Of a DNA stretch of 64,000 nucleotides, positions 4,652 through 60,450 are shown one piece after another; the first letter of the stretch is position 1; each line of letters begins with the position of its first letter. This DNA is from a virus. A model generated the notes under the pieces. That model was given only the letters and a program-made list of their open reading frames with translations, was not told where the DNA came from and did no database searches. Location of the stretch: positions 1-64,000 of the IMG/VR virus record IMGVR_UViG_3300042545_000821, one strand, 5' to 3'. Both the position numbers and the translations under genes were made by a program.

Positions 4652-4663
4652 AGGTACTATTCT

Positions 4664-4819: not shown

Positions 4820-4822
4820 GAT

Positions 4823-5065: not shown

Positions 5066-5074
5066 TTTTTATTC

Positions 5075-5659: not shown

Positions 5660-5691
5660 AATATTCCTCTCTATAGGAGGAACATCTTACC

Positions 5692-6944: not shown

Positions 6945-7270
6945 TATAAATTTAACCCATCAATACTAGGGTAATTTTTAAAGTCTTTTGTTACACAAGT
7001 GGCGCAGTCCATCCCAAAGTGGGCAATTCTAGATCCACCAGCGGTCGTACCGGGCTCTTGTTGTTTAGGTCCTATGTCTCTTTTAGCATCTTTTGCCATT
7101 AATGATTTTAAGTGCGTGTCAAACCGCGCTGAAACATCAGCAGGCATCTTTTTTTTACTCCCGCGGTTTACTATCGCATCTTTAACCTTAGTTTTTGCAG
7201 CACGAAGGTCTCCCGCAGCTCGAGAGTTTTTAATACGTTTAAGGTCACCCTTTAGCGTTCTTTTTGCCAT
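6944..7270 (-). CDS. Basic hypothetical protein, 108 aa
   Basis: The N-terminal 60 residues are a Lys/Arg-rich helical region (TLKGDLKRIKNSRAAGD, KTKVKDAI). The end carries a single CATC pair after AHFGMD. That HFGMDC segment loosely resembles the cysteine-bearing HACFGTNC part of the next protein, so the two may share a metal site or ancestry. Function unknown. Confidence 0.65.
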   Translation of the reverse strand: MAKRTLKGDLKRIKNSRAAGDLRAAKTKVKDAIVNRGSKKKMPADVSARFDTHLKSLMAKDAKRDIGPKQQEPGTTAGGSRIAHFGMDCATCVTKDFKNYPSIDGLNL

Positions 7271-7273
7271 TAC

Positions 7274-7546
7274 CTAGTCCGTAGGAAGAGTTTGGTTATA
7301 AGTCTTATCTATCATAGGGCGGCGACCTAAAGCAGCTTCTGCCTTAAGTGGGTTTACTTTTGTTGGTGACTCAGAGTCGATGAAGTCATAGTTCCAATAA
7401 GGATTTAAGCCACGACGGTTTGCAAGCATGATTTCGTCACCTGTGCCAGGAGCAACAGTTGTGTTAGGACGAACTTTGCGGTACTTGCCGTCTGTTGCGC
7501 CCTCGTCCATAGACTTATTAAGTGAGCGTGATTCGTTAGTAGCCAT
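7274..7546 (-). CDS. Hypothetical protein, 90 aa
   Basis: Not recognised. Polar and probably extended, with a GLNPYWNYDF aromatic patch in the middle. I chose ATG 7546, which overlaps the upstream stop as TAATG and has GGGTGAA before it, over an ATG at 7561 that has no ribosome site and would add five residues. Possibly a minor virion component; that is a guess from its company. Confidence 0.65.
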   Translation of the reverse strand: MATNESRSLNKSMDEGATDGKYRKVRPNTTVAPGTGDEIMLANRRGLNPYWNYDFIDSESPTKVNPLKAEAALGRRPMIDKTYNQTLPTD

Positions 7547-7899
7547 TATTTTTTCACCCATTCAGTTGCTGAACGAACTCCACTATTGTAAGTAGGATCT
7601 GTTTTTTGTTTCTCAATGGTCTTGTCTAATTTCTTTGCTGCGGTACGTAGAGCTGTTCCTCTATCTACCCTTTCGCCAGATCCAGAGCGACCTGAATAGC
7701 CATAGTCAGCCTCATACTTAACGTCTTCACGGTCGTAATGATTTTGACGTCTTTCGTCATCAGTAGGCTTTGGCCCTGCATCACGAAGTGCGCCTGACTT
7801 TGCCATGGCTTGTATTGCAGCAATAGTGTCCGCACTTCCTTTTTTATCTTTACCAAACTTAAAAGGTTTTCTTTTACCGTCGCGACGTGGTGGTCTCAT
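7546..7899 (-). CDS. Basic hypothetical protein, 117 aa
   Basis: Begins with a strongly basic stretch (RPPRRDGKRKPFKFGKDKKG), then a DERRQNHYDREDVKYEADYGYSG polar region and a Lys-rich helix. No family recognised. Coupled by TAATG to the next gene. The hydrophobic frames seen on the opposite strand here are a by-product of Lys codons. Confidence 0.65.
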   Translation of the reverse strand: MRPPRRDGKRKPFKFGKDKKGSADTIAAIQAMAKSGALRDAGPKPTDDERRQNHYDREDVKYEADYGYSGRSGSGERVDRGTALRTAAKKLDKTIEKQKTDPTYNSGVRSATEWVKK

Positions 7900-7901
7900 T
7901 T

Positions 7902-8273
7902 TTATTCATCCATCTTTCTCTTTTTAATAGGTGCATTTTTGCCCCAACCTTTGGACTTCTCAACACGAGGCTTTACTTTTTGACCTGCTTTTCTTTTTGC
8001 ATCAACATAGTGGTCACGAGTCTTAGGTCCGCCACCCATACCACGTTGGCGCTCAACGAACTCTTTGCTATCTTCAACAACTACTTTTCTAGGAAGAACT
8101 TTTCGTGCCTCGTTAATGGTTCCTTTAACCTTGTCCTTAACTTTTTCTAACTTTGGGTGTGCTTCACGCTTTTTTGCGTCTTTTGCTGCAGCTGCCTTTT
8201 TACGCGCAGCTTGCTCGCGCTTTGGTACGCCAGAAAGATAATCAGTACCTTTGTATGCGTCTTTTTTTGCCAT
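7902..8273 (-). CDS. Lys/Arg-rich hypothetical protein, 123 aa
   Basis: About a third of residues are Lys or Arg, with Ala-rich helical runs (EQAARKKAAAAKDAKKREA) and a basic end KNAPIKKRKMDE. It resembles histone-like or DNA-condensing proteins in composition, but composition alone cannot assign a role. It follows the stop of the upstream gene directly (TAAATGG). Confidence 0.65.
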   Translation of the reverse strand: MAKKDAYKGTDYLSGVPKREQAARKKAAAAKDAKKREAHPKLEKVKDKVKGTINEARKVLPRKVVVEDSKEFVERQRGMGGGPKTRDHYVDAKRKAGQKVKPRVEKSKGWGKNAPIKKRKMDE

Positions 8274-8627
8274 TTATTTATTTCCTTTTCTTTTTGGCTT
8301 CGTATTTGCGGAGCTTTTTTTCTTATTCTTAACTGCTTCTTTTGCCTTAGCTTTTTGCATTTCGTGATCTTTTAAACTTTTTTCCTTTAAAGGGACAACC
8401 TTCATTTTGTTATTGACTTTAGGGCCTTTGGGATTATCCGGATTAGCCCCCGCACCAGCATAAGCTTTTTTAGGCTTTTCTTTTTCTCTAATAACTCGGC
8501 CAAAGTATTCACCGTCATTTTTATCGGGTTTAATGCCATAACTGCCTTTGCTAGGCGCTTTAGGCAGGCCAACACCAAACTTCTTCTTTGGGCCGTCATC
8601 ATCTGCTGAGGCTACTGCTGTTTTCAT
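8274..8627 (-). CDS. Lys-rich hypothetical protein, 117 aa
   Basis: Extremely Lys-rich, especially the C-terminal half (KAKAKEAVKNKKKSS), with a short Gly/Pro-rich segment around DNDGEYFGR-like acidic residues near the N-terminus (KNDGEYFGRVI). No family recognised. Probably disordered and nucleic-acid binding; inferred from charge. Confidence 0.65.
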   Translation of the reverse strand: MKTAVASADDDGPKKKFGVGLPKAPSKGSYGIKPDKNDGEYFGRVIREKEKPKKAYAGAGANPDNPKGPKVNNKMKVVPLKEKSLKDHEMQKAKAKEAVKNKKKSSANTKPKRKGNK

Positions 8628-8647
8628 GGTTCTATTTTTCCCTATTC

Positions 8648-8968
8648 TTATTGATCTGGCGCCTTAAACTTTTTGCGAACTTTGGCAATTCTGGGCCTTA
8701 TGACCTTTTTGCTTCGAGCTACAAATTTCTCACTATGTCGGTATTTAGATATAGCTGCGGGAGAACCAGGATTAATACCCATAGATTGTTTAGATACCCA
8801 AGGGGCTCGACGGGCTTGTTTTGACCAGCCGCTGCTCATAGACCCAGTGGTTGCACCGCCGGGAGCTAATCTAGCCTTTGCTTTTGGTGTTTGAGAAGCT
8901 TTGCTACCGCCTATTGCTCTAGGAGGTGCTTTAGGTTTAGGGGGTTTAGGAGCACTACCTTTCGCCAC
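8648..8968 (-). CDS. Basic Pro/Ala-rich hypothetical protein, 106 aa
   Basis: I place the start at GTG 8968 because GGGAGG lies eight bases upstream; a GTG at 8977 is too close to that site. The protein is a Lys-Pro-Ala chain (PKPPKPKAPP) with a C-terminal basic region RSKKVIRPRIAKVRKKFK. The start overlaps the end of the previous gene by 14 bases. Function unknown. Confidence 0.6.
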   Translation of the reverse strand: MAKGSAPKPPKPKAPPRAIGGSKASQTPKAKARLAPGGATTGSMSSGWSKQARRAPWVSKQSMGINPGSPAAISKYRHSEKFVARSKKVIRPRIAKVRKKFKAPDQ

Positions 8969-9137
8969 GAGATCCACCTCCCATTGCAGACTTAGCGTGT
9001 TTTTTATACATAAGATTTCGGCACTCTACACATAGCCCAGTATCCCCAGAGTAAAGAACCTCGAGGGGAGTCATTAGCTCATCGCATTTTGGACAGAACT
9101 TTGACCCAGAGTATACAGACTTAGTAGCGTATTCCAT
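8955..9137 (-). CDS. Small zinc-ribbon protein, 60 aa
   Basis: FCPKCDE near residue 14 and LCVECRN near residue 35 form a CxxC...CxxC zinc ribbon, followed by a basic helix (LMYKKHAK) and a Gly/Arg tail. Such single-domain ribbons bind nucleic acid or protein partners. It directly follows the thioredoxin gene's upstream neighbour in the same operon, with its ATG one base from the preceding stop. Confidence 0.75.
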   Translation of the reverse strand: MEYATKSVYSGSKFCPKCDELMTPLEVLYSGDTGLCVECRNLMYKKHAKSAMGGGSRGER

Positions 9138-9401
9138 TTAAACCTTCTGTCCAGCAAAGATCTCATCAATCTTTTCTACATCAAAGGCGCCGTCTATGCG
9201 GTTAACCATGTTGCCTCCGTTAAAAAAGATAAATGTAGGTACTGCCCCAACTCGGTTTATTTCTGCCGCGTCCTTATCTTCGTCAAAGTCAATCTTTACA
9301 TACTCAACTGTTGGGTTAGCTGTTAGATATTCCTCTATAAGAGGCTTCATCTGCTTGCAGTAGGTGCACCATTCAGCTGTAAAATGCCATAACTCTTTCA
9401 T
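9138..9401 (-). CDS. Thioredoxin-like protein
   Basis: 87 residues with the complete thioredoxin core: FTAEWCTYC (redox Cys12 and Cys15, an active site variant of WCGPC), the VKIDFDED strand, and the cis-proline loop AVPTFIFF. It would reduce disulfides in the cytoplasm; the obvious partner is the class II ribonucleotide reductase at the left edge. The start is ATG 9401, which forms TGATG with the upstream stop; a GTG three bases earlier is possible. The Thr-Tyr pair between the cysteines suggests glutaredoxin-like or specialised redox behaviour, which is inference. Confidence 0.9.
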   Translation of the reverse strand: MKELWHFTAEWCTYCKQMKPLIEEYLTANPTVEYVKIDFDEDKDAAEINRVGAVPTFIFFNGGNMVNRIDGAFDVEKIDEIFAGQKV

Positions 9402-9769
9402 CACCAGAATCCTTGGTCTTGTGCGTTACGCAGGGTTCCTTGGTAGCCTGCTTGGGATGCAGTAAAGTCTACCCTAGTTGGCTGGAAGGTTTCATCCACA
9501 TTCATAACGTCGCGTATACCAAGAACTCGGGTACGATACCCAAATCTAGGTGGGAGCATCTGTATAGTAGGTATAGTTGGTCGTACCAAACGCTGTAAAG
9601 CGTGGCCCGGCATAGTTACAGAGTTTAGCGCTTGCGAAATAAGCTGCTCTTGCTTATTAGCAAAAGGGCCCATATAGTCATAACGAATACCAAGATCTTC
9701 TTCTTCATTGCGAGTTCCTACAATTTGTCGAGGTTTAGTATGGTCATAGATGGAGTCTTGTGAGTTCAC
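9401..9769 (-). CDS. Hypothetical protein, 122 aa
   Basis: Not recognised. The start is GTG 9769, overlapping the upstream stop as GTGA. Composition is that of a globular or virion protein, with aromatic and Pro-rich segments (GIRYDYMGPF, PTIPTIQMLPPRFGYRTR). Possibly structural, since the protein at 10028-10573 has similar style and lies in the same operon. Confidence 0.65.
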   Translation of the reverse strand: MNSQDSIYDHTKPRQIVGTRNEEEDLGIRYDYMGPFANKQEQLISQALNSVTMPGHALQRLVRPTIPTIQMLPPRFGYRTRVLGIRDVMNVDETFQPTRVDFTASQAGYQGTLRNAQDQGFW

Positions 9770-10026
9770 TTAACTTGACCGCCTTCAAAATTAGCAGTGT
9801 CATTTTTTCGTGAACGAGGGGGTTTTCTAGGTGCAAGAGGTATTCCCTGACTTAACTTACCAAGCACGCTTTCAATCTCTGATTGAGAATATCTTTTGTG
9901 GCCTCCCGGGCTTACGCCTACACCTTTTAAATTTACAGCATGACGACGTACAGTCTTTGGGCTAACACGCCATTTTTTTGCAACTTCTCGTGTAGTGTAA
10001 AAGGGCTCGTCGTTTTCTAGTGCCAT
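9766..10026 (-). CDS. MerR/excisionase-type helix-turn-helix protein
   Basis: 86 residues from ATG 10026, which lies one base after the upstream stop and is preceded by GGA; a longer start at 10068 would overlap the neighbour. Residues 9-45, FYTTREVAKKWRVSPKTVRRHAVNLKG, form a helix-turn-helix followed by a basic wing (GHKRYSQSEI), the layout of excisionase and MerR-family DNA binders. The C-terminus is basic and unstructured. No integrase is in the window, so a role as transcriptional regulator is more likely than excision. Confidence 0.8.
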   Translation of the reverse strand: MALENDEPFYTTREVAKKWRVSPKTVRRHAVNLKGVGVSPGGHKRYSQSEIESVLGKLSQGIPLAPRKPPRSRKNDTANFEGGQVK

Positions 10027-10027
10027 A

Positions 10028-10573
10028 TTAATTCCAATGTGGTCGTAAGTGAGAGAACTGCTGAGCAAGTCTAGGATTAAACTCTGCAGGCACGTTTGCT
10101 GAGATATTAGCTTTACCGTCGTTTACCAATTTAGGGGCCGGAGCTAGGTTCTGATTTGGGGTGTATCGAGGAATGGTCATAGTAATTGCGCCGTCATTTT
10201 CAGCCATAGAGTAAAGATTTTGTTTTACTCTACGATCTGGGCGTAAATCTTCTGGCCACATATATTGACCTGGATCAATGCGCTCGCCTTTGTGTACTCC
10301 ACGTTGGTAAGCGCGTTGATTTGTTCTGTTCTTTAAAGAATCTAATACTGTATCTGATACAGCGTAAGGTTTGCCTTTATCATCACGGCGTGAACGTATA
10401 GTTCCTAGATAGCCGTCTGGGTATTCCGCTTGTGGAACACGACCAATACCTAAGCGCTGGTAGTCAAGGTCGCTTCGTGGTACCACTGGGGTACCATTTC
10501 CACCAGTGGTGGTGTAAGCGCCTTGATAACCATTAGCACCAAGGTATTGCCAGTTTTGATGTGATTGAGGCAT
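10028..10573 (-). CDS. Hypothetical protein, possibly virion-associated, 181 aa
   Basis: Not recognised. Rich in Gly, Asn, Tyr and Arg, with the central ERIDPGQYMWPEDLRPDRRVKQ-like region probably helical and long loops on both sides. No membrane segment, cysteines or catalytic motif. Its neighbours are an HTH regulator and membrane proteins, which gives no firm clue. Confidence 0.6.
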   Translation of the reverse strand: MPQSHQNWQYLGANGYQGAYTTTGGNGTPVVPRSDLDYQRLGIGRVPQAEYPDGYLGTIRSRRDDKGKPYAVSDTVLDSLKNRTNQRAYQRGVHKGERIDPGQYMWPEDLRPDRRVKQNLYSMAENDGAITMTIPRYTPNQNLAPAPKLVNDGKANISANVPAEFNPRLAQQFSHLRPHWN

Positions 10574-10591
10574 GCCTTAAGTTTACTTCTT

Positions 10592-10870
10592 CTACTTAGC
10601 TTTGGCTTTCTTAGCGGCCTTCTTATTTGAGTTTGCCAAAACAGCAGCTAATTGCTTCTCAACCTCAGGCAAAGCGAGCTTTACAAGACCAAATGCTGGG
10701 TCCTTTGGGTTTACGGCGCGAATTGCTACTGGCAGGATTGCTGCTAGTCCGGCTGCGATGAGTCCCTTTGGGTCAGTGTTTCCAGTGCTCCATAGAGCTA
10801 CGGCTGCTGCAAGAAATGAGCGCCCATATGATGCGAGCATTGCTATGATTTTTGGATCTAGCTTCTTCAT
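10592..10870 (-). CDS. Small membrane protein, holin candidate
   Basis: 92 residues. Two hydrophobic segments, about residues 13-28 (SYGRSFLAAAVALWS) and 37-54 (GLIAAGLAAILPVAIRAV), separated by a short polar turn, and a Lys/Ala-rich cytoplasmic tail (KKAAKKAKAK). This is the layout of many phage holins. The neighbour at 10873-11115 has one membrane segment plus a coiled coil, and holin-type genes are often paired this way. No endolysin gene is adjacent, so the lysis role is inferred only from topology. Confidence 0.6.
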   Translation of the reverse strand: MKKLDPKIIAMLASYGRSFLAAAVALWSTGNTDPKGLIAAGLAAILPVAIRAVNPKDPAFGLVKLALPEVEKQLAAVLANSNKKAAKKAKAK

Positions 10871-10872
10871 GA

Positions 10873-11115
10873 TTATTCCTTATCTACTTTCTTTACTAAT
10901 ATAGTAAAGAGATCATCTAACCTTTTTGATTGAGCTTCTTGACTTTTTTCTAGACGATTAACTGCGTCCTTAACTGAACTGCCCCCGTTTGGTTTTAATT
11001 CTGAGAAGTAATCAACAACAAGTCTTTTTACCATTCTAGTAACCCTCAACTCTAATATTCCAAGAATTGTAAAGGTTCCAATAACTGCGGTAAAAGCGAA
11101 CTCAACATTAGACAT
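10873..11115 (-). CDS. Membrane-anchored coiled-coil protein
   Basis: 80 residues. An N-terminal membrane segment at about residues 6-23 (FAFTAVIGTFTILGILEL) is followed by a basic juxtamembrane part and a C-terminal helix with heptad-like spacing (VKDAVNRLEKSQEAQSKRLDDLFTIL). Its stop is two bases from the next gene's start. It may be a second holin, an antiholin or an anchoring protein of a lysis cassette. Confidence 0.65.
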   Translation of the reverse strand: MSNVEFAFTAVIGTFTILGILELRVTRMVKRLVVDYFSELKPNGGSSVKDAVNRLEKSQEAQSKRLDDLFTILVKKVDKE

Positions 11116-11141
11116 TAAGTTATCCTAAAAGTAAGGGGCAG

Positions 11142-11167
11142 GTGTACTGGCCTATCATGCAGTACAC
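11142..11167 (-). other. Intergenic hairpin
   Basis: GTGTACTG (11142-11149) and CAGTACAC (11160-11167) pair perfectly around a ten-base loop in the 74-base gap between the metallophosphoesterase and the membrane protein genes. No T-run follows on the minus strand, so it is not a standard terminator. It could be an RNA processing or stability element, or a dyad operator for a protein. Confidence 0.4.
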
Positions 11168-11189
11168 GTGGTCAGTACGTCACGCTAAA

Positions 11190-12353
11190 CTAGGTAAGAA
11201 CTATTAATTCTCTTCTAGGATCTACGCCGTCTCCTACAACCATAGACACTATTCCTGGAGCGCTTTCTAGCCCAGACTTATCTCTAAACCAAGCAGATCC
11301 GTTATCCATTGCAGGGTTTTGTACAAATAATCTAGGGCCAACGCTTTGGGCGTGGTAATGGTGGTAGTGCCCAACGTTTAGTATGTCAGCCTGCGCTACA
11401 GCACATCGACCCATAGCTTGACCTCCCCACCATTTAATCATGTCACGAGCTTGATGGCCATGAGCCATGCCGTACATGACCCCACTTAAATTCACAGCTA
11501 TAGTCATGTCATCTGCTGCAGGATATCTAAACTCTACGCGATCTCGCAAAAAATCGTTTTCTTTACAAATATCTTCAACTTGAGAGACTACTTCAATCTG
11601 CCAAGAGTCTTCTGGCCTACCTAATAAAAATCTTTGAACTTCATCATGGTTCCCAGGAACAACCGGAATAATAAGCTTTGGTGATAGAGGAGCTAATGCC
11701 TTGACTTGAGCTAGTAACATTCTACGACCAACGCGTACCTGCTCTGATACGCCAATATCGTGTCGACCCATTACTTTACCTTTTTGACTTGTCATTCCTT
11801 CAATACAGTCACCGAGTTGTGGTAATGCAATTTGACCAATGGAATACTTTTTTGCTAAATACTTGTGATGATCTACTGCAGAATTAAAAGATTTTAATAC
11901 TCTATCTATAATTGATGGGGTGTCGTCTTTTCCATATTGAGTGTCGCCTATGCTGTATACAGCTGTTAAATCTCCTGAAGCAGATACAACTTTACTTGGC
12001 GACCACTTAGTTATTCCCATTAACAATTGTTCTAAATCATAATCAGGTCTGGTATTTACTCTCGAAGGAACTACATTGACTCTAAATGACTCTAACCAAT
12101 CACCGTTAAACGTTTGCCAACGTGATCTACGATGAGAAACTACTACCCACTCTGCTGGGTCTAGTTTTGCCTCTATTAATATTTCTTCTGCGCCGGGAGT
12201 ATTACCATCTGGTCTTGGAGTTGAAATAACAAAGCCACCCTCTGTACCTATTTCAGAACGTGGTCGCCACGCTTCTGGAATATTTTTGTTGGCTTTATCT
12301 GAACCTTGATTACCAGCTTGAATTATTGAATCATAATCATCTGCTAAAGACAT
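11190..12353 (-). CDS. Calcineurin-type metallophosphoesterase
   Basis: 387 residues. The metal-binding motifs occur in family order: SIGDTQYG (D-x-Q, taking the place of the usual D-x-H), LGDCIEG (GD), VPGNHDE (GNH[DE]), MAHGHQ (H) and GHYHHYH (GHxH). Proteins of this family hydrolyse phosphodiesters or phosphomonoesters and are common in actinophages, where the substrate is mostly unknown. The N-terminal 110 residues form a separate domain with WVVVSHRRSRWQTFNGDWLESFRV. ATG 12353 is chosen because AAGGAG lies seven bases upstream; a TTG at 12359 is too close to that site. The start overlaps the end of the upstream small gene. Confidence 0.85.
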   Translation of the reverse strand: MSLADDYDSIIQAGNQGSDKANKNIPEAWRPRSEIGTEGGFVISTPRPDGNTPGAEEILIEAKLDPAEWVVVSHRRSRWQTFNGDWLESFRVNVVPSRVNTRPDYDLEQLLMGITKWSPSKVVSASGDLTAVYSIGDTQYGKDDTPSIIDRVLKSFNSAVDHHKYLAKKYSIGQIALPQLGDCIEGMTSQKGKVMGRHDIGVSEQVRVGRRMLLAQVKALAPLSPKLIIPVVPGNHDEVQRFLLGRPEDSWQIEVVSQVEDICKENDFLRDRVEFRYPAADDMTIAVNLSGVMYGMAHGHQARDMIKWWGGQAMGRCAVAQADILNVGHYHHYHAQSVGPRLFVQNPAMDNGSAWFRDKSGLESAPGIVSMVVGDGVDPRRELIVLT

Positions 12354-51187: not shown

Positions 51188-51703
51188 TCAGCCGTTAGGG
51201 CTAAATTTAGTAGATTCATCGCCAAAAACAAAGGTTGTTATTGAGTACCTTTCTCTTTCTAAAACTGGAAATACTTGATGCTTAAGGTGGGCTTTGTGAA
51301 TAACCATGCTTCCTTGCCTTGGGGTAACGCTTAGACCAAGAGTTGGGTATATCAACTCTCCCCCAGTAAAGTCGTCATTTAAATAAATAGCAATACCAAA
51401 AACTATTTTTCTTGGGTCATCGGGGTTTCCGCCATCTTCATGCGGCCACATAAACTCTGAATTTCTTAACCTTCGTAAATCTCTAGAATAGGTTATTGAC
51501 TCTATATTAATAAAAAGTGTTTCAATAGTTTCATACACATTGTTCATTTTAAGCAATGACTCATCACTTATAGATTTAACTGTATTTCCTACGTGCGTAG
51601 TATCCCAATCAATATCTAGTTGAGCCTCAGATACAAGGGTACTTCTCAGCTCTTCATCTAAAAACCCCTCAATTTCGTACACACCTTCTCCGTGCTTTAT
51701 CAT
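51188..51703 (-). CDS. 2OG-Fe(II) oxygenase 1 (prolyl-hydroxylase-like)
   Basis: 171 residues. 2-oxoglutarate-dependent iron oxygenases hydroxylate C-H bonds in proteins or small molecules. The iron ligands are in FMWPHEDGG (H-x-D) and HLKHQVFPV (distal His); RYSITTFVF supplies the Arg that binds 2-oxoglutarate. YLNDDFTGGELIYPTL is the strand typical of the P4Hc group. It is the last of the cluster and is followed by the intergenic gap. Substrate unknown. Confidence 0.88.
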   Translation of the reverse strand: MIKHGEGVYEIEGFLDEELRSTLVSEAQLDIDWDTTHVGNTVKSISDESLLKMNNVYETIETLFINIESITYSRDLRRLRNSEFMWPHEDGGNPDDPRKIVFGIAIYLNDDFTGGELIYPTLGLSVTPRQGSMVIHKAHLKHQVFPVLERERYSITTFVFGDESTKFSPNG

Positions 51704-51705
51704 GA

Positions 51706-52374
51706 TTAGTTATACTTGCTACTGTTGATGTGGCAAATTTCAATTTCATTTATATTAACATGGTTTGGTAACGACCCTACCCAGTAGATAGCTTCTGCTA
51801 AATCCTCTGCAGTTAAGGCGTAGTCTCGTTTTTGCTCTTGGGTATCAATGGTCGCTGGACAAATTTCTGTAATTTTAATGCCAAATTGAGGAAACTCAAG
51901 CCTCATTGTGTCGATTAGGCCGCGCTCACCCCGCTTGGCGTTTGTGTAATTTCCACCGCCACGATAGGGCACCTTGCCTCCAAAAGAAGTAATAAAGACA
52001 ATTGTTGGAGAATCTGACTTTTCCATGCAGGGTACAAATAGTTGGGAAAGGTACATAGGCCCAGATACGTTTATATCGTAGGCGCGTCTAAAGTTATCCA
52101 TGGTTTCATTAATAATACTAGTTGGGTCAGAGCCACCACCAGCATTGTTAACTAAAAGGTCTAGGGTTATGTCTTTGTACTGCTCATAGAAGATCTCTAT
52201 TGCTTTAGAGTCTGTTACGTCTAAGCTATATACCTCAACGTTATCAGATACAAGCTCAGATACTTTGGAAAGATTTCTTGAAACAGCAATAACCTTATAG
52301 CCATTTTCAGATAGGCGTTTAACTGTTGCTAACCCCACACCTTTGCTTGCTCCAGTTACAATAGCTGTTTTCAT
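51706..52374 (-). CDS. Short-chain dehydrogenase/reductase
   Basis: 222 residues. TGASKGVG (cofactor loop, residues 8-15), LVNNAGGG (NNAG), ITSFGGK (catalytic Ser) and YTNAKRGERG (Y-x-x-x-K) form the complete SDR set. SDRs use NAD(P)H to reduce carbonyls or oxidise alcohols. Placed between two oxygenases with tight spacing, it could work on a hydroxylated product, for example a sugar or lipid; this is inference. Confidence 0.92.
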   Translation of the reverse strand: MKTAIVTGASKGVGLATVKRLSENGYKVIAVSRNLSKVSELVSDNVEVYSLDVTDSKAIEIFYEQYKDITLDLLVNNAGGGSDPTSIINETMDNFRRAYDINVSGPMYLSQLFVPCMEKSDSPTIVFITSFGGKVPYRGGGNYTNAKRGERGLIDTMRLEFPQFGIKITEICPATIDTQEQKRDYALTAEDLAEAIYWVGSLPNHVNINEIEICHINSSKYN

Positions 52375-52375
52375 A

Positions 52376-53002
52376 TTAATGAATCCAGTGTTGGGGCACC
52401 ATTATCTTTTCGCCACTCTTCACTAGGTGTGCAGTGTGGTGGTATGGTGGAGATGGTGGGAAAACAATAATGCTTCCAGCTTTTGGTTTGATAGCAAAAG
52501 TATAGCTTTTGTCTTGTGTTGCAATTTCAAAGTCAGGGTTTGGGCTAGCTAGAGTTAGTATTCCTTCTGGGGAAGCAATAGTAAAAGATAGCTCTCCACC
52601 CTCATAGTCGTCATTTAAGTACATAACAAAAGATACTTTAAGACGGCCATCCCCCTCTTGTTGGTCAAAGTGGGCACCCATATATGTGCCTGCCTTATAC
52701 TTTTTAATCGGATACATTGGAAATAGTTTAGGCTCATCTGTGATGCCGTGAGCTGCTGCATAATCTTTTGCTACATCATAAAAAGCTTTTTGTAATGTAG
52801 AGTAGATATAAGTCTTCTGGATATCTGACGGGTCTGCAAAAATACTTTTATCTGTTCCATAGACATACGCTTCCCCACTACACGCCATCCATTCGCCCCA
52901 AGGATTTTCGTTGTCCTGGTCAATTGCATCAACAAGCTTCTTTGGGTCTTCAATTACGTTTGTGTAGTAGTAAACTTTTTCTTCAAGTATTTCTCTGTCC
53001 AT
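52376..53002 (-). CDS. 2OG-Fe(II) oxygenase 2, variant 2OG-binding site
   Basis: 208 residues from ATG 53002, with AAAGGA six bases upstream; longer frames reach into the neighbour. GAHFDQQEG is H-x-D, YHHTAHLV holds the distal His, and YLNDDYEGGELSF is the hallmark strand. The last motif is GEKIMVPQHWIH, where Lys replaces the usual Arg. This enzyme may bind 2-oxoglutarate differently. Active or not cannot be judged from sequence. Confidence 0.85.
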   Translation of the reverse strand: MDREILEEKVYYYTNVIEDPKKLVDAIDQDNENPWGEWMACSGEAYVYGTDKSIFADPSDIQKTYIYSTLQKAFYDVAKDYAAAHGITDEPKLFPMYPIKKYKAGTYMGAHFDQQEGDGRLKVSFVMYLNDDYEGGELSFTIASPEGILTLASPNPDFEIATQDKSYTFAIKPKAGSIIVFPPSPPYHHTAHLVKSGEKIMVPQHWIH

Positions 53003-53012
53003 TTTGCGTCCT

Positions 53013-53672
53013 TTAGTACTTATTCTTTTGATAGTGGTCTTTTTCTTTAATGAATCCCACAAGAACATATCTTATGGGCCCATCCCCTACATGCTTGACT
53101 CCGTGCTCATACTCTTCGTTACCTGGAAAAAATAACATAGTTCCTGGTTTAGGCTTTAACTGGATATCAAGGTTTGGAAAAAATAATTCGCCGTCTGCAT
53201 AGTTATCATTAATATATACAATTGTAGCGTATTTTATAGATGGGTCTGTTTTTTGATCCGTATGCGCTTTTAACTCTACCCCTGGTTGCATCCGCTGAAT
53301 TGTTGCAAAACCACTTAAAATTAATTCCGGGTCGGCTTTGACTACCATTGAGTTTACAACATCATATAGGGGCCTTTGAATCTCATGATGCAAAATATTA
53401 AAGTTTTTATCTTTCCAATTTTGAGTAATTTCAAACTTACCCTCAGCAACTAAGTTTTCTACATCATCTCTGCCAAATTTTTCCATGCAAAACCATTTTA
53501 AGTTTGCGTGGTACTCTACTTCCCAGTCTTCTTGGGGGGTGCTATGTATAATATCCCAAAAAGTATCTATTTGATCTTGTGATAAAAAGTTGTCCACAGA
53601 AAATAGTTCTGAGGTAATGTCTGTAACTACGTACCCGCTATCTATTAGCTGTTGTTTAAAAGACTCAATCAT
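53013..53672 (-). CDS. 2OG-Fe(II) oxygenase 3
   Basis: 219 residues. ATG 53672 has GAGG nine bases upstream; ATG 53681 has no room for a ribosome site. Motifs are LKAHTDQK (H-x-D), EYEHGVKHV (His), RYVLVGFI (Arg) and YINDNYADGELFFPNL. The N-terminal 90 residues are helical and different from its neighbours, so this is a separate family member, not a recent copy. It overlaps the next upstream gene's end by 8 bases. Confidence 0.87.
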   Translation of the reverse strand: MIESFKQQLIDSGYVVTDITSELFSVDNFLSQDQIDTFWDIIHSTPQEDWEVEYHANLKWFCMEKFGRDDVENLVAEGKFEITQNWKDKNFNILHHEIQRPLYDVVNSMVVKADPELILSGFATIQRMQPGVELKAHTDQKTDPSIKYATIVYINDNYADGELFFPNLDIQLKPKPGTMLFFPGNEEYEHGVKHVGDGPIRYVLVGFIKEKDHYQKNKY

Positions 53673-54420
53673 TTGCAACATCCTCTATTTTGTATTTATT
53701 CCCGGCTGCGTCTAGCTTCCAGCCTTGCTTAAGGAGCTCTTGCCACTCTGCTCGTTCAATCTCTTGTTGCGCTCTAGTGGCCTTCATCTCTTCAGCCCAT
53801 GCATCTCGCACCTCTTGTGGGTACGCTGACTCTTCTCGGTCATCCCAGAAAGAACCAATGGTGTATCTGACACCACCTGTAATAAGAGATACTTCGTGCA
53901 TATTGTTAAACCCGCCGTCAAATACAGCGAGCAGCCCAACTTCTGGTTTAATCTCTAGGTTTTGTGCTGGGAACCGTAAAAGTCCACCTTCAAAATCATC
54001 GTTTAAGTATAGAAACCCTGCGTAGCGGCTTCTTGTAAACGCACCTGAGTTTCCTTCAGCATCTGTGTTGTCAGAGTGAATTCTTGCGTATGCTCCTGGC
54101 TCCCACTTCTGTGTGTGGTAACCAATTTTACAGATTGTTTTTGGGTCAAGGTCGTGGACTGAAGCAATTGCTTCAGGCATTGCCTTTTCAATATCTGAAA
54201 ATATAGTTGGGGATAAACCAGCGTCAATAACTTCTTGGTCGTTGTCTTGTGGCAAAACTGAAGAATATGACTCATAAAATGAAATAGGCATCCAAGAAAT
54301 TGCCCCATTGTCTGCCTGAGCATCTAAGGCCTGGATCATCTTTTTGCAGTCTTCTTTGCCTATAAAATTTTTATAAACAACTATATCTTTTGTTATTCTT
54401 GTTTTGTTTTCCAAGTTCAT
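53665..54420 (-). CDS. 2OG-Fe(II) oxygenase 4 with helical C-terminal tail
   Basis: 251 residues. ARIHSDNTD is H-x-D, NNMHEVSLI the distal His, VRYTIGSFW the Arg, and YLNDDFEGGLLRFPAQ the signature strand. A charged helix (VRDAWAEEMKATRAQQEIERAEW) of about 45 residues follows the catalytic domain and is absent from the others; it could bind a partner. The gene is downstream of the peroxidase-like gene. Confidence 0.87.
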   Translation of the reverse strand: MNLENKTRITKDIVVYKNFIGKEDCKKMIQALDAQADNGAISWMPISFYESYSSVLPQDNDQEVIDAGLSPTIFSDIEKAMPEAIASVHDLDPKTICKIGYHTQKWEPGAYARIHSDNTDAEGNSGAFTRSRYAGFLYLNDDFEGGLLRFPAQNLEIKPEVGLLAVFDGGFNNMHEVSLITGGVRYTIGSFWDDREESAYPQEVRDAWAEEMKATRAQQEIERAEWQELLKQGWKLDAAGNKYKIEDVAND

Positions 54421-54436: not shown

Positions 54437-55210
54437 CTAGTTATTTATAAGGGATTTGTCTCCAGCAAGAAGTTTTTCTATCTCCTGTTGAACAAGGGCA
54501 TACTCTTCATCAAACACTTCTGGGGTTCTTCCTTCTCCCATAGCGGCAGGGGTCCCTTTAGCTATTAAATCTTCTTTTAGTGTCTTTTCAATATCATAAT
54601 TTAACACTGTGCACTGAAACCAGTTGGCTACATACCCATCTTTATCAATAAGGTACTTTTCAAAGTTTCCGCCCTGCATTGCGCCGTTACCAAAAGGCTG
54701 ATTTAACCAAGGTGACAAATAACCATCTCTGTCTGGAATGCCGAGTTCTCTTTGTTTTTCAGCAAACACAAGCATTTGCTCGGCTATTTCTTTGTATAGC
54801 TCATGAGTTTCTTTTCGTGGTTGACCTAGGCCGTTTACAGAGCTATCGCCCTTGTGAGGGCTAAGCTCAGTAGCACTCTCATTTGGGTTTGACGACACCA
54901 TCTCTGAGAACTTAAACGTGGTTCCGTAGACTTCTTGACCATACTCTTGTGAATCTAAGCCACAGGTAATGCCTTCAGACCACTTGCCCTTAGTTACTCC
55001 TGGGCCACAATAGTCATTAGTAGGGATAGCAATAACTTGAAAATCATCTCCGCCGTACTTATCTTGAAGCCATTGAAGAACTTCCATTTGATTAGCGTTA
55101 CCACAGCCTACGGTTGTATTAGCCAGTAGGGTGACTTTACCCTTAAATTGACTTAAGAAGTCAGGGGATCCCTCAGCAGAGTTAAGCGGGATGTCGTAAA
55201 TTGATTTCAT
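54437..55210 (-). CDS. Glutathione-peroxidase-like protein
   Basis: 257 residues, longer than the usual 160-200. KGKVTLLANTTVGCGNANQM holds the peroxidatic Cys36 in the position of N-V-A-S-x-C-G. YLIDKDGYVANWFQCTVLNYD is the end of the fold, with the Trp that follows the N-F motif. It may reduce peroxides with thioredoxin or glutathione. An iron oxygenase cluster can produce oxidative by-products, so a protective role is plausible. An insertion of about 80 residues (KFSEMVSSNP to PDRDGYLSPW) is unusual. Confidence 0.75.
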   Translation of the reverse strand: MKSIYDIPLNSAEGSPDFLSQFKGKVTLLANTTVGCGNANQMEVLQWLQDKYGGDDFQVIAIPTNDYCGPGVTKGKWSEGITCGLDSQEYGQEVYGTTFKFSEMVSSNPNESATELSPHKGDSSVNGLGQPRKETHELYKEIAEQMLVFAEKQRELGIPDRDGYLSPWLNQPFGNGAMQGGNFEKYLIDKDGYVANWFQCTVLNYDIEKTLKEDLIAKGTPAAMGEGRTPEVFDEEYALVQQEIEKLLAGDKSLINN

Positions 55211-55231: not shown

Positions 55232-55918
55232 TTACGGCTTTCTATCCCCTGTATGCGCCGTAATTTCCCAAAAGAAGGGGCACGTAAATCTTAGGCCACT
55301 CTTGATCTCAGTAACCCCGTGAATGTAGTTTTTGTCGCCGGGGAAGAAGTAGGCGGCGCCCTTTTTAGGCTTAAACTGCACGCCCTGTAGCGGGAAGTAC
55401 AGCTCCCCGCCCTCATAGTCGTCGTTTAGATAAAACAAACTTGATAGGTCGTAGTTTGGGAAGTCGTTAGGTGTTCCGGCGTCAGGGCCCTCGTGAAGCT
55501 CTTTATCAGCGTGTGGTTTTTGAAACTGCCCAGGAAGCCATTTAACAATAGTTGTACCAGTTGGTATAACCTCTACCTTGTAGAACTCTTCAATAATTGG
55601 TCGTAGTCTTTGAAATAGCCCAGCAATTACTGGAGATATTTTTGGGTCATTTTTATCTAAAGTTGGCTGAGTTGCAACCCTATCTTTCCAATAATCTGAG
55701 TCGTAGGTAACGGTCCCATTCTCATTTGTATGGCTTTGCGTTACATCCCAAATTGTTAAAGACTTAGCGGCTTTCTCTAAAAACTCTATCTCTTCTTGGG
55801 TCATAAAGTTCTCTAGCTCAACAATCATGTCTTTGCTGTCCCCAAACCATCCTGAGGGAGTCATAGATGGCGTTCTTTTTGCTACAGTGTACGAGTCTTT
55901 ATCTTGTTCCATATTCAT
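55232..55918 (-). CDS. 2OG-Fe(II) oxygenase 5
   Basis: 228 residues. QKPHADKELHEGP (H-x-D), YIHGVTEI (His), LRFTCPFFW (Arg) and FYLNDDYEGGELYFPL are the catalytic and structural motifs. The start forms ATGA with the stop of the DUF6065-like gene. The HGVTEIxSGxRxTxPFFW block resembles cyanophage oxygenases of this class. Confidence 0.88.
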   Translation of the reverse strand: MNMEQDKDSYTVAKRTPSMTPSGWFGDSKDMIVELENFMTQEEIEFLEKAAKSLTIWDVTQSHTNENGTVTYDSDYWKDRVATQPTLDKNDPKISPVIAGLFQRLRPIIEEFYKVEVIPTGTTIVKWLPGQFQKPHADKELHEGPDAGTPNDFPNYDLSSLFYLNDDYEGGELYFPLQGVQFKPKKGAAYFFPGDKNYIHGVTEIKSGLRFTCPFFWEITAHTGDRKP

Positions 55919-56631
55919 AGTATATCTCTTTTCGTTTTATCTATTACTCCTAATTTTAATGTTTTTACTTCGTGAGAGCCTTGAGATTCTTTTTTCTCAT
56001 TTACAGCATCTCTATACCAGTCTGTCCATTTTCCAGACGAGTTTATTTCTTGTGCGGCAGATCCATAGGACATGTTTGCATTTAGTCTTTTTCTATCTGG
56101 ATCTTGGTACTCAACAATCTCAATATTTGTCCCATTTAAATTTGACAAAGATATGGGAATAATTGTGGCAACCGGAGTTCCCGCTTTAATAATTACCCGC
56201 TTATTGGCAACCTTTGCCTTAATAGCTAAGGGCAAAGGGTTGTCATAAAAAGAGGTACTAATTAAAGACGACATTGTCTCAAATTCGTCACTAAAGTAAT
56301 TTACTGGGTTAATGGTAAAAATACTAACATCCTGATCTGTTCTAAAAACTAACCCGGTATTTAGGCTTATAGAGGACTGACCCCTTCCAGAGTAGGCCCC
56401 TTCTGGACTAAATACTTGTACACGATCTGGGGTTTGGTCATTTACCCCATCCCAAATAAACTCAATATCTTGTAGACAAGACAGGCTCCAGCCAATCACA
56501 TTTGATTGGGTTACTGGAAAACACCTATAGGCATGGTTCTCTGATGTTGCATCCATCCAATCTCTTTTAATCGACATAGGTTGAATGTCAAACAAAGCTC
56601 CTTGTGTCTTCTCAACTGAGATATTAAACAT
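55915..56631 (-). CDS. DUF6065-like protein
   Basis: 238 residues. RCFPVTQSNVIGWSLSCLQDIEFIWDG, then SISLNTGLVFRTDQDVSIFTINPVNYFSD and FYDNPLPLAIKAKV with IIKAGTPVATIIPI is a beta-rich layout I know as DUF6065 from aquatic phages and bacteria. It is a partner-type gene often found beside 2OG oxygenases. The function is unknown. A second member is at 57297-58064. TAATG coupling with oxygenase 6 upstream. Confidence 0.65.
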   Translation of the reverse strand: MFNISVEKTQGALFDIQPMSIKRDWMDATSENHAYRCFPVTQSNVIGWSLSCLQDIEFIWDGVNDQTPDRVQVFSPEGAYSGRGQSSISLNTGLVFRTDQDVSIFTINPVNYFSDEFETMSSLISTSFYDNPLPLAIKAKVANKRVIIKAGTPVATIIPISLSNLNGTNIEIVEYQDPDRKRLNANMSYGSAAQEINSSGKWTDWYRDAVNEKKESQGSHEVKTLKLGVIDKTKRDIL

Positions 56632-57287
56632 TAATCTGCGTCTGCGCTATACATTTCTGGAGTATGAAACTTTTTGCTGTAATCTAACATTGTAACAATA
56701 GAGTATTTAGTTCCAGAAGTTACCGGTAGCGCTTGATGTGGGTACATAAAATTTGATGGAAAAATAAACAGGTCCCCAGCATCAGGCTTAACCTTTAAGT
56801 TTTGTAGTCTAAAGAAAAGCTCTCCACCCTCATAATCATCGTTTGGATACCCAACTAAAGAGACCGTACAGTTATAGGAAAAGCCATGGTCGTGATGTTC
56901 CATAAAGTGCTGTCCTGGACCATACTTAATGAAGTTAAATGCTTCCCAGTACTTTAGGTTGTTAATGTTATACATCCTTGAGTAGTCTTCAACTGCTGGC
57001 AGCTTTACGTCATAAAGATCTTGCCAAAGTGATTGAAGGTTTTGACTAACCTGGCTTTTATCATTTTCAAGATCAGTTTTCTTAAATTTAAAGTCGTTGC
57101 AATCTCTGTACTCTGGCATAAGCTGCTTATACCCAACATATGCAGGTTGCCAAGCGTACCCAGTAGTATCCCCTTCTGGCTTAAGGTTTGCTTCAATTCG
57201 GCCCATAACATCAATGTCTTTATTGATTACGCCCTTATAGCAAAAAATGCCGCTGCCTAAATCAACTTTTTCTGTCCATGTCTGCAT
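56631..57287 (-). CDS. 2OG-Fe(II) oxygenase 6
   Basis: 218 residues. FMEHHDHGF holds H-x-D, YPHQALPVTSGTKY holds the distal His and a Lys in place of the Arg, and YPNDDYEGGELFFRL is the signature strand. Oxygenase 7 at 58064-58771 shows the same E-H...P-V-S-G-T-K-Y end, so these two are close relatives with a shared change at the 2-oxoglutarate site. Confidence 0.87.
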   Translation of the reverse strand: MQTWTEKVDLGSGIFCYKGVINKDIDVMGRIEANLKPEGDTTGYAWQPAYVGYKQLMPEYRDCNDFKFKKTDLENDKSQVSQNLQSLWQDLYDVKLPAVEDYSRMYNINNLKYWEAFNFIKYGPGQHFMEHHDHGFSYNCTVSLVGYPNDDYEGGELFFRLQNLKVKPDAGDLFIFPSNFMYPHQALPVTSGTKYSIVTMLDYSKKFHTPEMYSADAD

Positions 57288-57296
57288 TACATTCTC

Positions 57297-58064
57297 CTAT
57301 TTGTATTCTCGTCTTGACCAAACACTATTTTGGTATACCCCGCCATCAGGCTGGCGATAAAACTGCATGTTATTAACTAGTTTATCATACATAGTAGATT
57401 GATCTGGGATCTCTATTTTATGTTCCCAGTTTTCTCTTTTAAACGGAAGAACCTGCATATACGGGGTTCCTTCCGGTAAGGTGCCTTCCCAGCCTTCTGG
57501 AAGAAAAAATGGAAAAGTTCCAAGTAAGTGAAGTTTATCTGAGTCCACAACGCCAGTAGTATTTAAAAATGGTAAGTCAAACCTATTCATTGGTGTCATA
57601 AACAGTGCACTATACCCTTCTGGAAGCTCTAATCCCCAAGGAGAACTCCAGGCAAAGTGGGTTTGATAATATCCTTTTGGGTGTTCAAACTGTGGCATTG
57701 GGGGCCTTTGTGTACAAAAATCTTGGTACTTAGGGTTATCAATTTTTACATCTATGACTCCCTGATCATTTTTATAAAAAACTAGGTCGCATGGTGTTTT
57801 AAAAATGTACCCGGTTGTAAAGGCATCCATAATAGCGGGGCACGCTTTCCATGTCGGAATCTTTCCATAATCATCAGTTGTGCCCTCTTTAGGAAACGGA
57901 CAAACTTCTTTTGGCGCTTTGTAGTATTCCCCGTTTGGCATCTTTGCAAATCTGTCTGCATCTTTATACCAGGCAGGAATTTGTGTTTGTGTTGGTACGG
58001 GAACAGAGATATGCTTTTTATCTATCCACGGCCTAAATGATCTAAATATGGCTACTAAAGACAT
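57297..58064 (-). CDS. DUF6065-like protein 2
   Basis: 255 residues. CPAIMDAFTTGYIFKTPCDLVFY, then SSPWGLELPEGYSALFMTPMNR and GTFPFFLPEGWEGTLPEGTPYMQVLPFKRE closely fit the DUF6065 layout: a beta-rich core with Pro/Gly turns. It is sandwiched between oxygenases 6 and 7 with TAATG coupling. Sequence identity to the other copy is low, so they are old paralogues or independent acquisitions. Confidence 0.7.
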   Translation of the reverse strand: MSLVAIFRSFRPWIDKKHISVPVPTQTQIPAWYKDADRFAKMPNGEYYKAPKEVCPFPKEGTTDDYGKIPTWKACPAIMDAFTTGYIFKTPCDLVFYKNDQGVIDVKIDNPKYQDFCTQRPPMPQFEHPKGYYQTHFAWSSPWGLELPEGYSALFMTPMNRFDLPFLNTTGVVDSDKLHLLGTFPFFLPEGWEGTLPEGTPYMQVLPFKRENWEHKIEIPDQSTMYDKLVNNMQFYRQPDGGVYQNSVWSRREYK

Positions 58065-58771
58065 TACTTGTGCCCCAATTCATTGATATCTGTCATAACA
58101 ACCACGCAATATTTTGTCCCTGAAACCATTGGCAGGGATGCATGCTCATAGATATAGTTTGATGGGAACACCGCGATGTCCCCTACTTTTGGTTTATAAA
58201 CTAGATTATCAAGTCTTGGGAACTTAAGGTCTCCACCCTCATAATCATCGTTAATATAAATAACCGCAGATACTGTGCAGTTGTATGCAGGGCCGTGGTC
58301 TGCGTGAATGTTGAAGTGAGTCCCTGCCCCCTCATACTTTACAAAGTTAAAAGCTTCGTAATATACGACGTTAATGCCCCAATACCTAGCATAGTCGTCT
58401 ATACAGTACTTAAGCTTTTGGTATATCTCCTCATGCAAGTCTATAAGTTCAGCGTTTGACTCATCTTTTGGCCCAAGGTTTTCCTGCTTATACTTAAAAT
58501 CTACACAGTCTCTTGCCCGCTTAACTGGGACATCAGACTGCGTAACTTGCGCCTCTGACCACTTGTATTTGTTGCCTGGTGATAGGTTGGATTCAAGAGT
58601 GTTAATGTATCTTGCAGCATCTTCACTGGAAAAAGTGTTTTGGTAAACGTGTAGTCCCAAACCTAAATTTTTAACACTTACTTTATCGTCTAGAGCTCTT
58701 TCAGGAACTCTATTTGATGCAGTCTCTGACCTATCTTTTGTAAACCAGATGTTTTCATTTTCATTGTGCAT
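58064..58771 (-). CDS. 2OG-Fe(II) oxygenase 7
   Basis: 235 residues. FNIHADHGPAYNCTV (H-x-D), YEHASLPMVSGTKYCVVV (His and Lys in the Arg place) and YINDDYEGGDLKFPRL. It is the first gene of the oxygenase block in reading order. The N-terminal region EDAARYINTLES and the rest are close in layout to oxygenase 6. Confidence 0.88.
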   Translation of the reverse strand: MHNENENIWFTKDRSETASNRVPERALDDKVSVKNLGLGLHVYQNTFSSEDAARYINTLESNLSPGNKYKWSEAQVTQSDVPVKRARDCVDFKYKQENLGPKDESNAELIDLHEEIYQKLKYCIDDYARYWGINVVYYEAFNFVKYEGAGTHFNIHADHGPAYNCTVSAVIYINDDYEGGDLKFPRLDNLVYKPKVGDIAVFPSNYIYEHASLPMVSGTKYCVVVMTDINELGHK

Positions 58772-59511: not shown

Positions 59512-60450
59512 TTAGTAAGCGCACTGACAACCGCACCCTGCGCCAAAGTCATACGCACAGAAGTAGCAAGCTGATCCACAGCCACCAAAGGATGGGAAGC
59601 TAGGTGGGAAGAAAGGAGGGAAGAACGGAGGGAAGAACGGGAAGAACGGTGGAAAGAATGGTGGAAAGAACGGGAAGAATGGGAAGAATGGCGGGAAAAA
59701 TGGTGGGAAGAAGGGAAAGAATGGCGGGAAAAATGGTGGGAAGAAAGGAAAGAATGGAAAGAATGGTGGGAAGAAAGGAGGAAAGAATGGGAAAAATGGT
59801 GGAAAGAATGGTGGGAAGAAAGGAAAAAACGGTGGGAAGAATGGCGGGAAGAATGGGGATAACGTAGTAATAGAGCCAGACGCAGCAGAAGCAACACTTG
59901 TTCCATTAGCGTTAGTTGCGGTGACTGTGTATGTCTGTGACGTTCCACCAGTATCAGCGATAGTAATTGGGGAAGTCGCACCTGTTCCAGTAGTGGCATC
60001 GGAGCCTGTTACGGTAAAGCCAGTAATTGCGCTACCACCAGTTGCTGGTGCTGTAAAAGCAATAGAGTTTTGATTAACTCCAGCAGTTGGGGTTGGGGCA
60101 GACATAGTTGCAGGAACTGTTGTTGCGGTAATAGAAGATGATGCTGCAGATGCCTGAGAGGTTCCCGCAGCGTTAGTAGCTGTTACAGTAAATGTGTAGG
60201 CTGTGTCAGACTGAAGTCCAGCTACCGTAATTGGGGAAGATGATCCAGTTCCAGTATATCCGCCAGGCGATGAGGTTACAGTAAACGATGTAGCAGCAGG
60301 GGACAGCGCAGGCAAAGAAAATGTAACTGTAGCTGCGCCATTGTTAAACGCTCTTCCTGTTCCAACATTTGTAGCAGATACGCTTGTTGGAGCTAATGGC
60401 TCTAAAAAGTCATTTGAAGCCTGTGACTTTTTTCCAACTCTTTTACCCAT
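59512..60450 (-). CDS. Fibronectin-III-like adhesin with FFPPFFPPFFP repeats and Cys-rich end
   Basis: 312 residues. After a basic start (MGKRVGKKS) two Ig/FnIII-like domains span residues 18-110 and 115-197 (SFTVTSSPGGYTG, YTFTVTATNAAGTS; GFTVTGSDATTG, YTVTATNANGTS). Residues 200-283 are Phe and Pro only: seven copies of FFPPFFPPFFP and two FFP linkers. The end SFGGCGSACYFC...GCGCQCAY has six cysteines. I infer a virion-surface or cell-surface adhesive protein; nothing like a membrane anchor is seen. CAGGAG precedes the ATG. Prolyl-hydroxylase-like genes lie 0.7-8 kb downstream. Confidence 0.8.
   Translation of the reverse strand: MGKRVGKKSQASNDFLEPLAPTSVSATNVGTGRAFNNGAATVTFSLPALSPAATSFTVTSSPGGYTGTGSSSPITVAGLQSDTAYTFTVTATNAAGTSQASAASSSITATTVPATMSAPTPTAGVNQNSIAFTAPATGGSAITGFTVTGSDATTGTGATSPITIADTGGTSQTYTVTATNANGTSVASAASGSITTLSPFFPPFFPPFFPFFPPFFPPFFPFFPPFFPPFFPFFPFFPPFFPPFFPFFPPFFPPFFPFFPFFPPFFPPFFPFFPPFFPPFFPPSFPSFGGCGSACYFCAYDFGAGCGCQCAY
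59602..59853 (-). repeat. 33-bp tandem coding repeat (FFPPFFPPFFP units)
   Basis: 252 bases encoding 84 residues, with seven 33-base units and two 9-base linkers. The coding strand is almost entirely pyrimidine, so the plus strand is a near-continuous purine run. The units vary at synonymous positions (TTC/TTT, CCA/CCG/CCC/CCT), which shows selection for the protein pattern over exact DNA repetition. Slippage between units could change the length. Confidence 0.95.

What the first reader, a model, noticed from the sequence alone, without database searches (positions are those of the whole stretch)
59602..59853. Seven FFPPFFPPFFP repeats between FnIII-like domains and a six-Cys end
The region consists only of Phe and Pro over 84 residues with synonymous variation between units, so selection keeps the peptide pattern. 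Such a hydrophobic polyproline-like rod on a secreted or virion protein would be adhesive or would cross an envelope. I know of no described function for it.
Basis: partly seen in the sequence, partly recalled or inferred. Interest (0 to 1): 0.75.

Follow-up and report, generated by a model that had tools for sequence, protein, structure and literature searches.

The report
Phage proline-phenylalanine rod with dedicated hydroxylases
Many freshwater and marine phages carry a tail-region protein with a long rod made only of phenylalanine and proline, and almost always keep next to it a set of enzymes related to prolyl hydroxylases, so these phages probably chemically modify the rod.

Summary
A 312-aa protein (window 59512-60450, minus strand) has two fibronectin-III domains, an 84-residue array of Phe and Pro only (59602-59853: seven 11-mers FFPPFFPPFFP, two extra FFP, one extra P), and a six-Cys end. 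It is not an artefact: a second metagenome contig has the same gene with one synonymous change, and 157 complete relatives keep the array in frame.

The surroundings explain more than the array does. In 76 of 80 FnIII-array loci a same-strand 2OG-Fe(II) oxygenase gene lies within 4 kb downstream. The mean is 6.3 such genes in 7.5 kb, against 0.06 upstream and 0.058 in random viral DNA. Gene order is conserved. By sequence profile and predicted fold they are nearest to prolyl hydroxylases. A second class with an unrelated PASTA-like N-terminus and [F/Y/H]FPP arrays also has them (29 of 35).

Best reading: the array is a hydroxylated, polyproline-like stalk of a tail fibre-like protein, carrying a swappable tip (Cys-rich, Hint-like or other). 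Hydroxylation and virion location are inferred, not shown. No published description of FFPP arrays in phages was found. This gives the abundant, unexplained phage 2OG oxygenases a testable substrate.

The parts
59512..60450 (-). Array protein, 312 aa: N-terminal motif, two FnIII-like domains, F/P array, six-Cys end
   Evidence: ORF; 100% identical protein in L003; relatives
60394..60450 (-). Conserved N-terminal motif (MGKRxGKKSQASNDFLEP), possible virion attachment signal
   Evidence: K3, G6, S9, N13, D14, F15, P18 invariant in 24 aligned relatives; role inferred
59860..60393 (-). Two FnIII/Ig-like domains (approximate limits)
   Evidence: Pfam fn3; AlphaFold pLDDT about 97
59602..59853 (-). 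F/P array, 84 residues: FFPP and FFP units
   Evidence: all codon variants synonymous
59515..59601 (-). Six-Cys C-terminal end, one of many alternative ends
   Evidence: C-ends differ between close relatives
58064..58771 (-). Oxygenase A, 2OG-Fe(II), prolyl-hydroxylase-like
   Evidence: PF13640 E=1.9e-10; AlphaFold and Foldseek
56631..57287 (-). Oxygenase B
   Evidence: PF13640 E=2.3e-13; own clade
55232..55918 (-). Oxygenase C
   Evidence: PF13640 E=5.7e-9; own clade
53665..54420 (-). Oxygenase D
   Evidence: PF13640 E=2.3e-7; own clade
53013..53681 (-). Oxygenase E
   Evidence: PF13640 E=5.6e-11; own clade
52376..53068 (-). Oxygenase F
   Evidence: PF13640 E=5.9e-12; own clade
51188..51703 (-). 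Divergent seventh oxygenase-like gene
   Evidence: Tet_JBP E=4e-4, below curated cut-off; hit by the local oxygenase profiles
55915..56631 (-). DUF6065 gene, conserved companion (U)
   Evidence: PF19541 E=5e-26; conserved position
57297..58064 (-). DUF6065-related gene, second companion (U)
   Evidence: no Pfam hit of its own; hit by the local profile of the 55915-56631 gene; conserved position
51706..52374 (-). Short-chain dehydrogenase at the end of the cassette (s)
   Evidence: PF00106 E=6e-40

Best explanation
The protein is most likely a tail fibre-like virion protein. Its N-terminal part with two FnIII domains holds it on the virion, the F/P array is an extended polyproline-type stalk of variable length, and the C-terminal end is a swappable tip for host recognition. 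The downstream enzymes, related to prolyl hydroxylases, hydroxylate the array prolines (and possibly other residues) before assembly. That would make an otherwise insoluble F/P rod soluble and stiff. Shown here: anatomy, protein-level conservation of the array, C-end variability, linkage to the oxygenases, and their nearness to prolyl hydroxylases. Inferred: hydroxylation of the array, virion location, stalk shape, and recognition by the tip.
For: 76/80 FnIII-array loci have a same-strand oxygenase within 4 kb downstream; mean 6.35 in 7.5 kb against 0.06 upstream and 0.058 in random viral DNA. Starting from the oxygenases, 38/42 loci with room upstream have an F/P array; of the other four, three have a variant array and one is cut at the contig end beside a Hint-type gene. 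Conserved gene order and six well supported oxygenase clades. A second class with a different N-terminal domain also has oxygenases downstream (29/35). 16/16 array-bearing records carry 6 to 13 PF13640 domains. The oxygenase profile is closest to Bacillus prolyl 4-hydroxylase, human prolyl 3-hydroxylase and PHD2, and the predicted fold to PHD2, algal P4H and PBCV-1 vCPH. Iron-binding HxD...H residues invariant in the aligned set. C-ends unrelated in 93 of 111 pairs with 85-95% identical N-termini. AlphaFold gives no compact fold for the array.
Against: No direct evidence of hydroxyproline. AlphaFold confidence in the array is low (53-61), so stalk shape is not shown. PKHD/PiuC-type enzymes, whose substrates may be different, are also among the matches. 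L228 has its oxygenase cluster well away from the array gene. The oxygenase-first test drew its loci from near relatives of one window enzyme, so the two directions are not fully independent. Why six to seven enzymes would be needed is unexplained. For PBCV-1, a cited personal analysis found no hydroxyproline in particles (PMC7019647, ref. 162).
Confidence: 0.6

Rival explanations
1. The oxygenases belong to the tail-fibre module but modify something else (other fibre proteins, host surface or host regulators). The array is an unmodified hydrophobic rod that sticks to the host surface or inserts into the envelope.
For: 2OG oxygenases also occur in phages without F/P arrays, for example next to uvsX in cyanophage Syn19 and in random control loci without proline arrays.
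Against: The linkage holds for two unrelated N-terminal domains and in the oxygenase-first direction, and the enzyme family is the one that acts on peptidyl proline.
Confidence: 0.25
2. The array is mainly a recombination hinge: repeated DNA that lets the phage swap C-terminal tips and change stalk length, with little structural role of its own.
For: C-ends are swapped beyond the array, and arrays gain or lose whole unit blocks in frame between relatives with the same flanks.
Against: All codon variation within the window array is synonymous and the F/P rule holds over 220 distinct arrays, so the peptide itself is selected. Tip swapping may still be a side effect of the repeats.
Confidence: 0.1
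3. The array is an assembly or sequencing artefact, or not translated as such.
For: Low-complexity repeats are prone to assembly error.
Against: Second contig with one synonymous difference; 157 complete relatives in frame, followed by intact C-ends; no array in 1.04 Mb of random viral DNA.
Confidence: 0.01

Closest known systems
PBCV-1 viral prolyl 4-hydroxylase (vCPH, PDB 5c5t) and its proline-rich peptide substrates (Eriksson 1999, cited in PMC9301287 and PMC7019647)
   Same: A virus encoding a prolyl hydroxylase together with proline-rich repeat proteins (the repeats from my own knowledge); the fold is among the best matches of the window enzyme.
   Different: Algal virus, not a tailed phage; other repeat sequences; a single enzyme rather than a conserved cassette of six or more next to the substrate gene (comparison from my own knowledge).
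Collagen and collagen prolyl 3-/4-hydroxylases
   Same: Proline-rich extended repeat plus dedicated 2OG prolyl hydroxylases (enzyme similarity).
   Different: No Gly-X-Y repeat here; Phe-rich; no triple helix is implied.
Phage tail fibres and receptor-binding proteins with repetitive stalks and variable tips
   Same: Position after an Mtd_N fibre gene in the tail region, variable C-end, and a Peptidase_S74 chaperone end in one relative (L242).
   Different: Stalk made of FFP/FFPP units with an adjacent oxygenase cassette; no such stalk was found in the literature searched.
'Fibronectin type III' proteins of uncultured Caudovirales phages in UniProt (A0A6J5MFV5 and others)
   Same: Same family: 60% identity over 261 columns of a structural alignment.
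   Different: Named only for the FnIII domain; no description of the array or of the oxygenase link was found.

Membership tests
2OG-Fe(II) dioxygenases (cassette genes) | Double-stranded beta-helix fold with HxD...H iron ligands | tested here: met
   PF13640 above its cut-off for six genes; His, Asp and His invariant in 16 aligned sequences; AlphaFold and Foldseek for A
Peptidyl-prolyl hydroxylases | Nearest relatives by profile and by fold are prolyl hydroxylases | tested here: met
   PKHD/PiuC enzymes are also matched, so the subfamily is not settled
Peptidyl-prolyl hydroxylases | Hydroxylates proline in a peptide, 2OG- and Fe(II)-dependent | not testable with these tools
   Needs biochemistry
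Phage tail fibre / receptor-binding protein | Encoded in the tail-fibre module, with a conserved N-terminal part and variable C-end | tested here: met
Phage tail fibre / receptor-binding protein | Present in the virion and binds the host | not testable with these tools
   Needs virion proteomics and binding assays
Collagen-like proteins | Gly-X-Y triplet repeats | tested here: not met
   The window array contains only F and P, no glycine
Hint / intein-like domains (C-end of some relatives) | N-terminal Cys, block-B His, C-terminal HN | tested here: inconclusive
   Weak Pfam hits. By reading the sequences, L067, L098 and L436 appear to keep all three; others lack one or more

The most novel reading that the evidence does not exclude
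A phage-encoded post-translational system: a cassette of six to seven distinct prolyl-hydroxylase-like enzymes builds a hydroxylated aromatic-proline rod on the tail, with each enzyme specialised for a position in the FFP/FFPP pattern. This would be a structural biopolymer class not described before, and would explain at least part of why 2OG oxygenases are so common in aquatic phages.
Probability: 0.4. Interest if true: 0.92.

Novelty: new variant of a known kind. Interest (0 to 1): 0.8.

Why it matters
2OG-Fe(II) oxygenases are common accessory genes of aquatic phages, and recent papers call their role unclear (PMC13184970; PMC9301287 calls viral use of prolyl 4-hydroxylase cryptic) or report wide similarity to the human prolyl hydroxylase EGLN3 without naming a substrate (PMC12774648). 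Here the genome itself points to one: a proline array encoded beside a multi-enzyme cassette. That makes the question directly testable by co-expression and mass spectrometry. It would also add an aromatic-proline rod to the known biological materials.

Tried and rejected
Artefact: rejected. Collagen: rejected, no glycine in the array. Cellular origin: the long pattern has no hit in the GTDB species genomes; the short pattern gives 17, of which four (L195, L199, L206, L207) are clear array proteins, all on MAG contigs, and the rest mostly look like short or out-of-context ORFs. Cultured phages: tblastn with the window protein and with a PASTA-class protein found nothing in 50,697 phage records, but BLAST masks low-complexity sequence, so this is not proof of absence for the array alone. 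Stable fold for the array: AlphaFold gave none. Literature: 'FFPPFF' occurs in three papers on mushroom cyclic peptides and one unrelated paper; DUF6065 in no held paper. The 7- and 11-residue spacing, reminiscent of coiled coils, was considered and dropped, because proline every 3-4 residues does not allow helices. Random control loci that carry an oxygenase have no proline array by the simple scan used.

Full report
What is there. The minus-strand ORF 59512-60450 encodes 312 residues: a conserved N-terminal motif, two FnIII-like domains (Pfam fn3; AlphaFold pLDDT about 97), an array of exactly 84 F and P residues at 59602-59853, and a 29-residue end with six Cys. The array is seven FFPPFFPPFFP 11-mers with two extra FFP and one extra P. 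Its 23 units have 17 DNA sequences, and every departure from the commonest codon is synonymous. Phe codons in the array are mostly TTC (34 of 46), while 13 other genes of the window use mostly TTT (211 of 246). Across 220 distinct arrays TTC is used 6198 times against 652 TTT. This may avoid slippery T runs or suit the tRNA; it was not followed up.

Is it real and widespread. A second metagenome contig (L003) has the same gene with one synonymous change in 939 bases. 157 complete relatives have the array in frame. Arrays are built of 3- and 4-residue units xFP(P), with x mostly F, then Y, H, S, T. Relatives with the same flanks differ by whole blocks of units (L024/L025, L132/L162). GTDB genomes have almost none, so this is a phage feature.

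Where it sits. The record is a 100.8-kb virus contig with tail sheath, baseplate J, an M23/SLT-domain protein and fibre genes. Sheath and DNA polymerase are nearest to Streptomyces phages of the BRock type (33% and up to 40% identity), and the upstream fibre to Arthrobacter phages. An actinobacterial host is therefore likely but inferred. The array gene follows an Mtd_N-domain fibre gene.

The C-end is swapped. Of 111 pairs of relatives with 85-95% identical N-termini only 18 have similar C-ends. End types among the complete proteins: 57 Cys-rich, 13 Hint-like, 73 short others, 14 longer others. One relative (L242) ends in Peptidase_S74, and Hint-type ends give only weak Pfam hits. This is the pattern expected of a host-recognition tip; the function is inferred.

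The linked enzymes. Downstream in the window lie six PF13640 oxygenases and a seventh divergent one, two DUF6065-related genes, a glutathione-peroxidase-like gene and a short-chain dehydrogenase. Across relatives, 76 of 80 FnIII-array genes have a same-strand oxygenase within 4 kb downstream. The mean is 6.35 in 7.5 kb downstream (n=46) against 0.06 upstream (n=34). Random viral contigs have 8 oxygenases in 1.04 Mb, 0.058 per 7.5 kb. That control is not matched for habitat or for tail modules; the upstream flank of the same phages is the better internal control. Starting instead from the oxygenases, 38 of 42 loci with room upstream carry an F/P array; of the other four, three have a variant array (L424, L425, L436) and one (L431) is cut at the contig end beside a Hint-type gene. 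Those loci are near relatives of one window enzyme, so this is not a fully independent test. The order A-U-B-U-C-D-E-F, or a close variant of it, is kept in most of 46 loci, and sampled members of A to F form six well supported clades. Sixteen of 16 long array-bearing records have 6 to 13 PF13640 domains. In the window's own record all six lie within about 6 kb, beside the array gene.

A second class. Proteins with a short PASTA-like N-terminus (Pfam PASTA weak, in L231) and arrays of almost pure 4-residue units ([FYHW]FPP), plus a few with Ig-like repeats, also have oxygenases downstream: 29 of 35 within 2 kb. These are mainly one C-like and one A/B-like enzyme. The FnIII class has mixed units (62% 4-residue units) and more enzymes. 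So the enzymes follow the array, not one particular anchor domain. A link between unit type and enzyme set is suggested but not tested.

What the enzymes are. The profile of 16 cassette oxygenases matches Bacillus prolyl 4-hydroxylase (E=1.6e-13), human prolyl 3-hydroxylase 1, PHD2, collagen and algal P4Hs and lysyl hydroxylase LH3, and also PKHD/PiuC enzymes. The AlphaFold model of A (pLDDT 83) is nearest to PHD2, then Chlamydomonas P4H, PBCV-1 vCPH and the Pseudomonas and Bacillus P4Hs. Iron ligands are conserved.

Mechanism. I propose that the array is the substrate: prolines are hydroxylated, giving a soluble, extended polyproline-type stalk (84 residues would be about 26 nm at 3.1 A per residue, by calculation) between the FnIII anchor and the tip. 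Linkage and enzyme family are shown; the reaction, virion location and stalk shape are inferred. The main rival is that the enzymes act on something else in the tail module or in the host.

Known context. Published work treats phage 2OG oxygenases as unexplained accessory genes (PMC13184970; PMC9301287) or notes their likeness to EGLN3 (PMC12774648). PMC7019647 cites an analysis that found no hydroxyproline in PBCV-1 particles, a caution. The close UniProt relatives are named only 'Fibronectin type III', and the text of PMC6802176, a freshwater phage metagenome paper which I recall as their source, does not mention oxygenase, hydroxylase, fibronectin or proline.

Noticed in passing
L443 (Synechococcus phage S-SCSM1, MK867354.2) 2807-11829: Seven 2OG oxygenase genes flank two tail fibre genes; the short tail fibre (6006-7271) contains a long RQPR / FRxP-type repeat. 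A cultured phage with a possible analogue.
   Followed up: partly
L006, L029, L030, L031, L043, L047, L067, L069, L072, L076, L098, L177, L178, L425, L436: Hint/intein-like domains directly after the F/P array, some apparently with the catalytic Cys, His and Asn, others degenerate; they could release or ligate the array end.
   Followed up: partly
window 55915-56631 and 57297-58064: DUF6065 family and a related gene, interleaved with the oxygenases at a conserved position; function unknown and no paper found.
   Followed up: partly
window 59602-59853: Reversed Phe codon use in the array (TTC 34 of 46) against other genes of the window (TTT 211 of 246); also seen over 220 arrays.
   Followed up: partly
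window 54437-55210: Glutathione-peroxidase-like gene within the oxygenase cassette, present only in some relatives.
   Followed up: no
L364 and L333 (random control loci): Long PTPT/PTPSxTPT proline-threonine repeats in several neighbouring phage ORFs, another proline-rich repeat type in phages.
   Followed up: no
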